The translations under genes and the position numbers were made by a program. The notes under the pieces were generated by a model, which was not told where the DNA came from, ran no database searches, and saw only the letters and a program-made list of their open reading frames with translations. From assembly GCA_030538185.1 (NCBI GenBank), contig JAUNUK010000002.1:248001-312000 (forward strand): 64,000 nucleotides of DNA, in the 5' to 3' direction. This stretch comes from Actinomycetaceae bacterium. Lineage in GTDB: Bacteria; Actinomycetota; Actinomycetes; Actinomycetales; Actinomycetaceae. This document shows positions 55,312-59,804 of the stretch, piece by piece (within the stretch, counting starts at the first letter, position 1; each line of letters opens with the position of its first letter).

Positions 55312-58300
55312 TTATGAAGTTGAGGGCCTGGGCGTGGGAGTCGTAGGAATCCCGGTTGCCGCCGTGCCAATGGTGGTTCCTGGGACACCACTATTGAGCG
55401 GTGTGTTGAGAACCTTGGTCACCCAGTCCAGGAAGGCTGCGGGGTCCTTTTTGGCCAGTTCCGCCAAGGCGTCCTTAGCCTCGCCTTGAACCTGTTTCGC
55501 GGCCTCGGCTTCCAGCCTTGCCAGTTCTGCCTTGCTTGCGAGGGTTCCGTCAACCAGGGTGATGTTGTCAAGCTTTGCCCCGTTGACCAGTTCGGCAACC
55601 TTGCGGCTGACGGCCTTTTCGCCACCGACGACGATGGTGCGGTCAGCCCCATGCCTGCGCAGTGCCTGTTCGGAATAGCTTGGCAGGGTATTGGTCTGGG
55701 TCAAGACGATGGTTCCGTTGATATTCGCAGCCAAGGCCCCGCCCGAGAGGGCATCGGGGAAGTTCTCTCCTGAAACGAGCACCGCCGAAGTGGTGCCTGG
55801 AACAGTGGCTGCCAGTTTGGCTGCGGTTTCGTAACGGTCTACGCCCACAACCTGATTGCGCACAACGGACATATTATTGGGCAGCGGCACGGTATTCATG
55901 GCCGTAGCTGCAGGTCCACCCACCGCAGTCAGGTTCATGGGGTGCGTGGAGCCCAACTCTGTCAGGTAACTCTGGATTGACCAGGGCACTTGGTTTCCGC
56001 TGGTCAACAGGGTTATACCTCGTTGACGCCCGGCTGCTGCCCCGGATGCCAAAGCATCTGGGAAGCCAATGCCGTCAGCCAAGTAGACATTGACGTTTTG
56101 TCCAGCCTGGCCTCCAGGGACCAATTCCATGGTGCGGCGAGCCACCTTCACAGAGGTCTCAAAGCGGTCTGCCCCAGCGATCTGGCTAATGTTGTATCCG
56201 GCCTCGGTCAGTTCAAACCTGTCATAGGGGCTGAGCTGTACTTTTCCGCCGACCAGGATGACGTGTTTCTTCTTGGCCACCTTGAGCTGTTCGACGATGG
56301 CCGGTTCTAAACCAGTGGACCAGGTGGTCAAGAGTATGGGTGCACGCAGGGCTGCTGCCAAAGGAGTGGCAGACAGGCCGTCGGCTGCGACATTGCCGTC
56401 GACAATAATGACGGAATCCCCAGAGAAGCCTCCGGCTTTCCAAGCGGCAATCGAGGTCAGAACGCGGTTATCACCTTCCACGCGCTGCGTATTGGCAGAC
56501 AGGGCTTTGGCTAGACGCTTAGCGTCGGCCTCTTGGGCCTTCTTGACTTCTTCAGCCTTCTTCTTGGCGTCAGCTTCAGCCTTCTTCTTGTCTGCTTCGG
56601 CCTTCTTTGCGGCCTCTTCCGCAGCCTTCTTTTCAGCCTCCGCCTTCTTCTTGGCTTCCTCTTCGGCCTTCTTCTGCTCGTCGGGGGTCAAGGGTTTGCT
56701 TCCACCCTTGGTGACATTCTCTACCTGCTTGAAGAGCTCTTGAATCTTGTCTTCATTGGCGCGAGCAGTCGTAATAGACGTCATGGCATCCGAGAGAGCC
56801 TGTCCGGCCTTATCTGCCAGGAGGACTGCATCATCAGTCGTCTTGACGACAGCAATTTCCGTCAGATAGCCATTGAGCTTATCCAGGGCCTGGTTAATCG
56901 AGGTGTAGGCGTCCTTGTTTTGGCGTGCGTAAGAGGCGGCCTCGCCCTTAATGTTTTGCACCAAGTACTTCAGCGACTGAGGCACCGCATCCACCTGCTT
57001 GCCCAACATAACCGTATTGAACTGGTCAGCAGCGTTGATCTGCAGGATCTCGTCCTTCAGTTTCTTGACCTGTTCCATGGCGTCTTTGACGCGCTTGGTC
57101 TGCTTGTCAATATCGGGCTGGTACTTGTATCCACGGTCCTTCAAAAGGTCAGAGATGGCAACCAGGGTATTGGCTTCATGTTGGGCCTCTAAGAACAGGG
57201 GAATCATGGGCTGCATGAGCTTGTGATAGTAGGCAGCATCATGCTCAGGCTTGAAATTGACCTTGTAGTTTTCCTCTTTGGCAGGATCGTTACTCTCTTT
57301 GGTTTCTTCCTTCAGATCAGCAATTTGCTTATCGAGGGCGGTCATTTGTTGCTCTAGCCGCAGCTTTTCAGCTGTGGCAGCAGCAATCTGTGCGTCGGTG
57401 GGTGCAGGATTGGTCTGCGCTAAAATCGCAGTTTGTGCATCAATGGATGCCTGGAGATTTGGTTTCGTCACCTTGACTAGATTATCTAGCTGCTTTTCTT
57501 TGGCAGTGAAAGCGCTCTTAGCCTGCAGGTACTTATTCAAGGTTGTCTTGTACTCAGAATCCCACTTGTCCTGGGCGTCCTTGAGGTTCTTTTCGGCCTC
57601 GGCAATGGTTGTATTGAGTGAGCCATTGGCTGAGTTCAGGTAATCCTTGAGGCGGTCGCGTTTCTCAACGTCGGACTTGGCCTTGTCCAGATTGGCCTGG
57701 GCCTTCTTCAGGGCTTCCTCCCCATCTTCCCTTTCAAACTGCGCATTACGTGCAGCGTTCTTCAGTTTGGTTTCATCGGCTTCGTTCTGAGTTGCCGTTT
57801 TATTTGGGTCCCTGGTCCAGGCTTTGAGTTCAGCTTTAGCCTCGAGTTCTGCCTTTCTGAGCTTATCGAGGGTATTGGTGGCGGCCTCGACTAGGTTAGT
57901 TTGCTCGACCAGCTTCTGATCTAAGAGTTTTGAAGAAGCATCGAAATCTTTGAGGGCCTTGTCTGCCAGGTTGCGGATCATCCCCAAAGAAACAGGTTTA
58001 TCCATGGCATCGTACTTATCGCCCTTGTAATCGGAGAGGTCACTGCCCGACGCACAGGTCGTGGGGATCTTATAGGCCGTTGTTTTTTCCAGCTCTACCT
58101 CTTGTTTTGTGGTCCCCGGGATCGGCTCTCTGCCAGTGTCGGCATCAACTTTGCCGCCAATGTCGTAGGTGGAACCTTCCGGTGTTGTCGCGCATACGAT
58201 GGCCTGTAGCCACTCAAGTTCATTGAGTGCTGCACTCTTCGTTATCTTGCCGTCTTTGTCCTTGGTGTCAGTCATCTGTGAGATAACAGCAGCCTCGCCA

Positions 58301-59646
58301 GTGGGGCCATCTCCAAAGAGGAAGCTATTGAGTTTCGGTTCGGCGGCATCCAGGTAGATGCCCTTATTGATGTAGATACCTGCCAGGGTTCCATTCTTCA
58401 CCAAGGGAGCGCCCCGATCATCAGGAGAGAAGCCCTTGTCATCAACGGTGAAGCCCTTTTGGACGTCTTTATTGTCGATGGAACCAATTTCTTTGGTGAA
58501 GTCCTGTGGCGTCTTAGTGAAGTCATCCCATCCGCCAGGTGTGGCCATGACATCAGTGCCAGAGGCGTTAACCAGGTGGTTCATCTTCACATCGGCATCG
58601 CGTGAACCCAAGGTCGGGGTCCCCGCGGTTTCTTTCCATCCCCACTGGGTGATCTTGTCAGCAATGGTGACCATTCCGGTGGGTTTTTTCAAAGGGGTAA
58701 TGCCAGTGACAGGTCGGTCCAAGCGCAGCAGCACCAGTTGGGCTTCGTACTTGGGCTTAATGCTTACGCCCCAGTAGACCTTGGCCGAACCAGGCATAGA
58801 AGAAGTCCCGAAAGTCACGCGAGGTGTTCCCTCAGAGATTAACCCCGTCACGACCTTCGTATTGCCCTTGCGGTCATCAGTACGAATAACGCCTTGGTAT
58901 GGATCCTTAGAGCCTGTGACACAAGCGCGAGAGGTCACAATCGTGCGGTTGTCAATGAGTGTTCCCGAGCACACATCCACAACAGTCTGATTAACTTGAG
59001 CCTCACCTGAACAAATGGTGCCTTCCTTAACAACCGTGCCCGCTGCAACGGTGGTGTTTGTAGGACACTTCCAAGTGCCGGCTACGGCATTATCGTTTTG
59101 AATAGGCTTTGCAGTGGTCTCGGGTGTGGCCCGACATTTGCTGGTAGCAGTGATCGTGCTATCTGTAGTTGAGGTGCCTGGTGGACACACAAAGGGGCCA
59201 TCGATAGCAGGCGTTTCAACCGTTTCGTCGTCCTCTTTATAACACTTTAGATTCGAAGCATTAAGGGTGGTCTTAGGTTTATAGCCGGGGGGACACACAT
59301 ACCGCGGTTCTTGTTTGGGAGAGACGTCTTCTCCAGAAGCCTCACACACCGTGGCAGAAACAATTGTCGTAACACCTGTAGGTTTCTTATATCCGGGCGG
59401 ACAAGACCAGGTAGCTGGCGTGCCACCTTCTTGGACAGCCAGGGCGGTGATCTCGCCTTGATAGGACTGGAACTTAGGTATCTCAACGCGGGCAACGAAG
59501 TTGCCGGCGGAGCCTGTGGCATCCGTAATATCGCTAAGGGCGTGTGCCGGGATGCTACCGGCGAAGACTAGTGCAGCGGCAGATATAAAGACTGCCAGCC
59601 TTGCAAGGCCCTTCCTTGCCTTTGATTCGTGGCTGCGGGTTTCCAC
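55312..59646 (-). CDS. Giant secreted CWB2 protein with inactive trypsin-like domain and coiled coil
   Basis: 1444 residues from GTG at 59646 (AGGAGGT upstream). Order: signal peptide (1-36); first trypsin-fold strand; four Cys-pair repeats (C82/C101, C118/C135, C154/C171, C194/C212), mostly beginning CPPG; rest of a chymotrypsin fold (CSGTLIDNRTIVTSRACV at 226-243); long coiled coil (about 560-1000); Lys/Ala/Glu tract; three CWB2 repeats (from about 1110); short tail. The catalytic triad is lost: Ala at the His position (241), Gln for Asp (303), Arg for Ser (411, DDRGAPL). Likely a wall-anchored, rod-like adhesion or binding protein using the protease fold as a scaffold. Confidence 0.8.
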   Translation of the reverse strand: METRSHESKARKGLARLAVFISAAALVFAGSIPAHALSDITDATGSAGNFVARVEIPKFQSYQGEITALAVQEGGTPATWSCPPGYKKPTGVTTIVSATVCEASGEDVSPKQEPRYVCPPGYKPKTTLNASNLKCYKEDDETVETPAIDGPFVCPPGTSTTDSTITATSKCRATPETTAKPIQNDNAVAGTWKCPTNTTVAAGTVVKEGTICSGEAQVNQTVVDVCSGTLIDNRTIVTSRACVTGSKDPYQGVIRTDDRKGNTKVVTGLISEGTPRVTFGTSSMPGSAKVYWGVSIKPKYEAQLVLLRLDRPVTGITPLKKPTGMVTIADKITQWGWKETAGTPTLGSRDADVKMNHLVNASGTDVMATPGGWDDFTKTPQDFTKEIGSIDNKDVQKGFTVDDKGFSPDDRGAPLVKNGTLAGIYINKGIYLDAAEPKLNSFLFGDGPTGEAAVISQMTDTKDKDGKITKSAALNELEWLQAIVCATTPEGSTYDIGGKVDADTGREPIPGTTKQEVELEKTTAYKIPTTCASGSDLSDYKGDKYDAMDKPVSLGMIRNLADKALKDFDASSKLLDQKLVEQTNLVEAATNTLDKLRKAELEAKAELKAWTRDPNKTATQNEADETKLKNAARNAQFEREDGEEALKKAQANLDKAKSDVEKRDRLKDYLNSANGSLNTTIAEAEKNLKDAQDKWDSEYKTTLNKYLQAKSAFTAKEKQLDNLVKVTKPNLQASIDAQTAILAQTNPAPTDAQIAAATAEKLRLEQQMTALDKQIADLKEETKESNDPAKEENYKVNFKPEHDAAYYHKLMQPMIPLFLEAQHEANTLVAISDLLKDRGYKYQPDIDKQTKRVKDAMEQVKKLKDEILQINAADQFNTVMLGKQVDAVPQSLKYLVQNIKGEAASYARQNKDAYTSINQALDKLNGYLTEIAVVKTTDDAVLLADKAGQALSDAMTSITTARANEDKIQELFKQVENVTKGGSKPLTPDEQKKAEEEAKKKAEAEKKAAEEAAKKAEADKKKAEADAKKKAEEVKKAQEADAKRLAKALSANTQRVEGDNRVLTSIAAWKAGGFSGDSVIIVDGNVAADGLSATPLAAALRAPILLTTWSTGLEPAIVEQLKVAKKKHVILVGGKVQLSPYDRFELTEAGYNISQIAGADRFETSVKVARRTMELVPGGQAGQNVNVYLADGIGFPDALASGAAAGRQRGITLLTSGNQVPWSIQSYLTELGSTHPMNLTAVGGPAATAMNTVPLPNNMSVVRNQVVGVDRYETAAKLAATVPGTTSAVLVSGENFPDALSGGALAANINGTIVLTQTNTLPSYSEQALRRHGADRTIVVGGEKAVSRKVAELVNGAKLDNITLVDGTLASKAELARLEAEAAKQVQGEAKDALAELAKKDPAAFLDWVTKVLNTPLNSGVPGTTIGTAATGIPTTPTPRPSTS

Positions 59647-59804
59647 GATTGACCTCCTGTCATTCCATCCATGGAATCTTTTCTAGGCACATGCGGGAAG
59701 TACAGTGCCCTCAGCAGTCTCCGACTGCCTATATGTTCTATCGGCAGACCCCCTGAAATTGTTACGAATTTGGTCCACCCACTCACACGCCGTGGGGCAG
59801 GCTC

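What the first reader, a model, noticed from the sequence alone, without database searches (positions are those of the whole stretch)
57900..59646. Trypsin fold with all three catalytic residues replaced, split by four cysteine repeats
In the 1444-aa protein the His, Asp and Ser positions are Ala241, Gln303 and Arg411, while the surrounding fold motifs remain. Between the first strand and CSGTLI are four repeats of about 40 residues, each with one Cys pair and mostly a CPPG start. With a long coiled coil and three wall-binding repeats, this reads as a stalk presenting a pseudo-protease head. I know of no described protein with this order.
Basis: partly seen in the sequence, partly recalled or inferred. 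Interest (0 to 1): 0.65.

Follow-up and report, generated by a model that had tools for sequence, protein, structure and literature searches.

The report
Wall-anchored stalk with dead protease head
A bacterium related to Mobiluncus makes a long surface protein whose outer end is a trypsin-type protease that has lost all three catalytic residues, and the same kind of protein sits at the same chromosomal place in four Mobiluncus species, so it is probably a binding device made from a retired enzyme.

Summary
The 1444-aa protein (55312-59646, minus strand) carries Ala241, Gln303 and Arg411 where trypsins have His, Asp and Ser. Four Cys-pair repeats lie between the first barrel strand and CSGTLI. 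The other trypsin-domain proteins recovered from this genome and four Mobiluncus genomes keep GDSG/GNSG, and the CWB2-linked ones also keep HC, so the loss is not an alignment error. Four full-length relatives occupy the same locus (hemW to hrcA) in Mobiluncus, with the same order: pseudo-trypsin, helical stalk, three CWB2 repeats. Their triads are replaced too, by different residues. None has the Cys repeats, which are private to the window species. The pseudo heads form one clade and, in the close Mobiluncus pair, are under purifying selection. No other genus among 213 family genomes has this head. AlphaFold failed (pLDDT 34 and 37), so the fold rests on sequence profiles (hhalign 98.1%). 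The best PDB match is the inactive trypsin domain of umbrella-toxin UmbA, which binds a peptide instead of cutting it. Most likely this is a wall-held stalk presenting a non-catalytic binding head; the ligand is unknown. It is a new variant of known kinds, not a new category.

The parts
59652..59658 (-). Shine-Dalgarno sequence AGGAGGT, 5 nt before the GTG start
   Evidence: read directly
55312..59646 (-). whole gene, 1444 aa
   Evidence: open frame; syntenic relatives in four Mobiluncus genomes
59539..59646 (-). signal peptide, residues 1-36 (basic start, hydrophobic core, AHA|LS)
   Evidence: sequence pattern only; no predictor run
59476..59496 (-). VARVEIP, first barrel strand of the trypsin domain, residues 51-57
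   Evidence: identical to VARVEIP of the M. mulieris relative, 0 of 2000 shuffles as good
58987..59409 (-). insert with four Cys-pair repeats (start residues 80, 116, 152, 192; Cys 82/101, 118/135, 154/171, 194/212)
   Evidence: absent from all four Mobiluncus relatives and without convincing match in 213 family genomes
58297..58986 (-). degenerate trypsin-like body, residues 221-450
   Evidence: Pfam Trypsin E 6.7e-4 alone, just below cut-off; hhalign 98.1% to active paralogs; PDB profile hits almost all S1
58924..58926 (-). Ala241 at the catalytic His position
58738..58740 (-). Gln303 at the catalytic Asp position
58414..58416 (-). Arg411 at the catalytic Ser position (DDRGAP for GDSGGP)
56512..57981 (-). 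helical, heptad-rich stalk, residues 556-1045
   Evidence: heptad power 33.5 against shuffle mean 11.1, 0 of 500 shuffles
55582..56487 (-). three CWB2 wall-binding repeats, residues 1054-1355
   Evidence: Pfam PF04122, E 1.2e-38, three stretches

Best explanation
An exported surface protein. It is held to the wall polymer by three CWB2 repeats. A long helical stalk carries at its outer end a trypsin-type domain that is homologous to the CWB2-linked trypsins common in these bacteria and lost its catalytic triad, most simply once, before Mobiluncus and the window genus parted. The head no longer cuts. It most likely binds a partner, plausibly an extended peptide or loop lying in the former substrate cleft, as UmbA does with UmbB. 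In the window species an extra block of four Cys-pair repeats sits in the loop between strands 1 and 2 of the head, probably widening or changing the binding surface. Shown here: gene, domain order, triad loss, common descent of the five heads, purifying selection in the close Mobiluncus pair, Cys insert private to one species. Inferred: export, wall attachment, stalk shape, disulphide pairing, binding, and the cleft as binding site.
For: All three catalytic residues replaced in five of five relatives, by different residues (A/D/R; Q/G; R/L/I), while the disulphide Cys, G196, P198 and strand motifs stay. Other trypsin-domain proteins of the same five genomes keep HC with GDSG, or GNSG in HtrA types. 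Pseudo heads are one clade, 99/99. Head dN/dS 0.17 for M. curtisii against G099 and 0.12 for M. curtisii against M. porci, so the dead head is kept. Same locus in all five. Best PDB profile hit is UmbA, 8w20, E 1.3e-6; UmbA's trypsin domain is inactive and binds UmbB's N terminus in its major cleft (PMC11062931). Three CWB2 repeats are what anchoring needs in C. difficile (PMC4973711).
Against: No structure: both AlphaFold runs failed, pLDDT 34.0 and 36.9. No ligand or partner gene identified. The second half of the head, after about residue 340, is very divergent and matches trypsins mainly around DxGAP. The UmbA match covers only the N-terminal half (profile 30-146). Synonymous sites are near saturation in the curtisii-porci pair, so that ratio is rough. 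The PILL-type motif is textbook in only one of the three CWB2 repeats (PILLT at 1103; the others read ITLLT and TIVLT).
Confidence: 0.6

Rival explanations
1. Structural envelope protein: the protein is part of an S-layer-like coat or spacer, and the head is only a folded cap or self-assembly interface without an outside ligand.
For: CWB2 proteins form the C. difficile S-layer family; NCBIfam SlpA (NF033435) matches the anchor weakly, E 1.3e-8 to 2.3e-12, far under its cut-off. One copy per genome at a fixed locus.
Against: Heads diverge far more than the anchor (window against M. mulieris 31% head, 57% anchor; M. curtisii against M. mulieris 19% and 77%), more typical of a variable outer surface. 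The SlpA match is only to the shared CWB2 part.
Confidence: 0.25
2. Functional relative of umbrella-toxin UmbA: the head docks an UmbB-like adaptor and the protein is part of an antibacterial particle.
For: UmbA is the best PDB match of the head profile; both are secreted actinobacterial inactive trypsins.
Against: No lectin domain. No ALF-repeat UmbC found in the five genomes, although the tool's control did not ring, so absence is not proven. Wall anchor and stalk in one chain are not UmbA features. The head aligns with the resident CWB2-linked trypsins over the full length.
Confidence: 0.05
3. Still an enzyme with non-canonical chemistry.
For: Head is conserved under purifying selection.
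Against: All three catalytic positions and the oxyanion glycine are gone, and the replacements differ between species (A/D/R, Q/G, R/L/I), so no alternative conserved active site is visible there.
Confidence: 0.03
4. Decaying pseudogene or assembly error.
For: Loss of catalytic residues taken alone.
Against: Open frames of 1271-1444 codons in five species, perfect ribosome-binding site, same locus, head dN/dS about 0.15, anchor strongly conserved.
Confidence: 0.01

Closest known systems
CWB2-linked secreted trypsins of Actinomycetaceae (for example loci L001, L002, L004 of the same genome)
   Same: signal peptide, trypsin-type domain, three CWB2 repeats; homologous head (hhalign 98.1%)
   Different: intact His and Ser motifs, 554-604 aa proteins, no stalk, no Cys repeats
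UmbA proteins of Streptomyces umbrella toxin particles (PDB 8w20; PMC11062931)
   Same: secreted actinobacterial trypsin domain lacking a complete triad; in UmbA shown inactive and to bind a partner peptide in the cleft
   Different: C-terminal lectins, soluble particle with UmbB and UmbC; no wall anchor or stalk in the same chain
Clostridioides difficile Cwp family (SlpA, Cwp2, Cwp66, CwpV; PMC4973711)
   Same: three CWB2 repeats anchoring variable outer domains
   Different: none of those discussed in the passages read here carries a trypsin-type head; different phylum
MamO (PMC4794232)
   Same: bacterial trypsin-family pseudoprotease repurposed for binding
   Different: magnetosome protein, metal binding; unrelated architecture

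Membership tests
Peptidase family S1 (active trypsin) | His-Asp-Ser triad | tested here: not met
   A241, Q303, R411
Peptidase family S1 (fold and descent, inactive members included) | sequence homology to the S1 domain | tested here: met
   hhalign 98.1% over 182 columns to active paralogs; PDB profile hits almost all S1; 4 of 5 members match Pfam Trypsin at E up to 1, best 1.9e-5; the window member scores 20.0 against a cut-off of 20.6
Peptidase family S1 (fold and descent, inactive members included) | two-barrel chymotrypsin fold | tested here: inconclusive
   AlphaFold pLDDT 34.0 and 36.9 with four rows
CWB2 wall-anchored proteins | three CWB2 repeats | tested here: met
   PF04122 in three stretches, E 1.2e-38
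CWB2 wall-anchored proteins | P[ILV][ILV][LV] motif in each repeat | tested here: inconclusive
   PILLT at 1103 and TIVLT at 1312, ITLLT in repeat 2 by eye; Pro missing in two
CWB2 wall-anchored proteins | binding to the wall anionic polymer | not testable with these tools
   needs experiment
UmbA (umbrella toxin) | incomplete catalytic triad in a secreted trypsin domain | tested here: met
UmbA (umbrella toxin) | C-terminal lectin domain | tested here: not met
   only CWB2 found after the head
UmbA (umbrella toxin) | ALF-repeat UmbC in the genome | tested here: inconclusive
   none found in five genomes, but no control genome rang
UmbA (umbrella toxin) | UmbB partner | not tested
   no UmbB query was run

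The most novel reading that the evidence does not exclude
A lineage-specific family of wall-anchored pseudo-trypsin receptors in Mobiluncus and its sister genus. Exchangeable, fast-diverging heads ride on a conserved anchor and capture a host or bacterial partner in the former substrate cleft without cutting it. One lineage added a Cys-repeat insert to the head.
Probability: 0.3. Interest if true: 0.6.

Novelty: new variant of a known kind. Interest (0 to 1): 0.45.

Why it matters
If the head binds instead of cutting, this is another actinobacterial use of a dead trypsin as a binding module besides umbrella toxins, here displayed on the cell wall by bacteria that include the vaginosis-associated Mobiluncus. 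It gives a single-copy, syntenic surface protein whose head can be purified and tested for partners, and a clear comparison (active CWB2 trypsins against inactive heads in the same genomes) for how a protease becomes a receptor.

Tried and rejected
Structure prediction of the head from the window (444 aa) and from M. mulieris (324 aa) failed with only four rows; no fold search was run on these models because matches would be meaningless. A first scan of genome contigs with the single protein found nothing; a second with the five-row alignment found three named Mobiluncus records. Alignment error as cause of the missing triad: rejected. Pseudogene: rejected. Alternative alignment in which repeat 4 supplies strand 1 (TTVAAGTVV): weaker (shuffle fraction 0.055 against 0). 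Relatives of the Cys repeats elsewhere: no plasmid match, none in PDB, only weak partial matches in other family genomes (E 0.001 or worse, in short open frames or next to stops), Pfam hits far below cut-off. Papers on a Mobiluncus CWB2 protein: none in the library.

Full report
What is there. The window holds a 1444-codon gene on the minus strand, 55312-59646, with a consensus ribosome-binding site just before its GTG start. In order the protein has a signal-peptide-like start, a short strand VARVEIP, four repeats of 36-40 residues each with one Cys pair, a body resembling trypsin, a long heptad-rich stretch, and three CWB2 repeats. Residues Ala241, Gln303 and Arg411 occupy the His, Asp and Ser positions.

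Is the trypsin relation real? On its own the window domain scores just below the Pfam cut-off (20.0 against 20.6 bits, E 6.7e-4). A profile of five relatives matches PDB chains that are almost all S1 proteases or S1 pseudo-proteases, among them HGF-like protein and heparin-binding protein. Aligned profile to profile with four active CWB2-linked trypsins it gives 98.1% probability over 182 columns, from CSG to beyond GDSGGP. The same genomes carry other trypsin-domain proteins. The other loci I extracted keep GDSG or GNSG, and the CWB2-linked ones keep HC as well. So the loss is specific to this protein and is not an alignment artefact.

Relatives. The genome is the only one of its genus in the held set. 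Full-length relatives occur in all four held genomes of one genus of the same family, which named records show to be Mobiluncus: M. curtisii, M. porci, M. mulieris and a fourth unnamed species (G099). All lie between hemW and hrcA/dnaJ, as in the window (gene names by my reading of the sequences). In the window species the gene runs opposite to hrcA; in Mobiluncus it runs with it. All four have the same order, and all four lack the triad, with other replacements: D or R for His, G or Q for Asp, L or I for Ser. None has the Cys repeats. A profile search of 213 family genomes finds the head only in these five, in 2 of 36 genera; at a strict cut-off, 396 genomes drawn across the order add none. 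'Sister genus' in this report is an inference from this shared locus, not from a species tree.

Evolution. The five pseudo heads form one clade (99/99), so the triad was most simply lost once. Between M. curtisii and G099 the head shows dN/dS 0.17, so it is kept, not decaying. Heads diverge more than the anchor: M. curtisii against M. mulieris 19% head and 77% anchor; window against M. mulieris 31% and 57%. The anchor tree keeps Mobiluncus together (97/93). The head tree puts M. mulieris with the window species, and holding Mobiluncus together is only marginally rejected (p 0.044, long branches). This hints at head exchange but does not prove it. Separately, between M. curtisii and G099 synonymous divergence jumps from about 0.2-0.4 in head and stalk to above 1 from about residue 800 of the M. 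curtisii protein through the anchor, then falls to 0.63 in hrcA. That is the mark of a recombination junction at the end of the stalk.

How it probably works. Export, wall holding by CWB2 repeats (three are needed in C. difficile, PMC4973711) and display of the head on a helical stalk follow from the parts; they are inferred, not shown. The head cannot use trypsin chemistry. The closest solved protein by profile is UmbA of Streptomyces umbrella toxins (8w20, E 1.3e-6; that this entry, named 'Secreted esterase', is UmbA is my reading of the umbrella-particle structure paper and memory, not stated by the tool). Its trypsin domain lacks a complete triad, is inactive, and binds the extended N terminus of UmbB in the major cleft (PMC11062931). 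By analogy I propose peptide or protein capture without cleavage. This protein is not an UmbA: it has no lectin and has an anchor instead, and no ALF protein was found (control silent).

Limits. No partner is known. Disulphide pairing and stalk geometry are unproven. The placing of the Cys insert in the strand 1 to strand 2 loop rests on one 12-residue match, strong but short.

Verdict. A real and unusual protein: a conserved, probably wall-anchored pseudo-trypsin of Mobiluncus and a related genus, with a private Cys-repeat insert in the window species. It is a new variant built from known parts.

Noticed in passing
L011:8105-11962 (M. curtisii) against L041:8066-12133 (G099): Synonymous divergence jumps from about 0.2-0.4 to above 1 from M. 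curtisii residue 800 through the CWB2 anchor, then falls to 0.63 in hrcA: a recombination junction between stalk and anchor.
   Followed up: partly
heads of the five relatives (L010, L011, L041, L042, window 58297-58986): Two head types: window plus M. mulieris, and the other three Mobiluncus; the head tree conflicts with the anchor tree.
   Followed up: partly
G000, whole genome: Rich in CWB2 proteins (23 matches to the query, most outside this locus), several linked to intact trypsins; one sits in a 4266-aa open frame at C1:233171-233998.
   Followed up: no
window 55312-59646: The gene keeps its place between hemW and hrcA but is inverted relative to hrcA compared with the four Mobiluncus genomes; two neighbouring membrane-protein-like genes are shared and are inverted in M. 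curtisii only.
   Followed up: no
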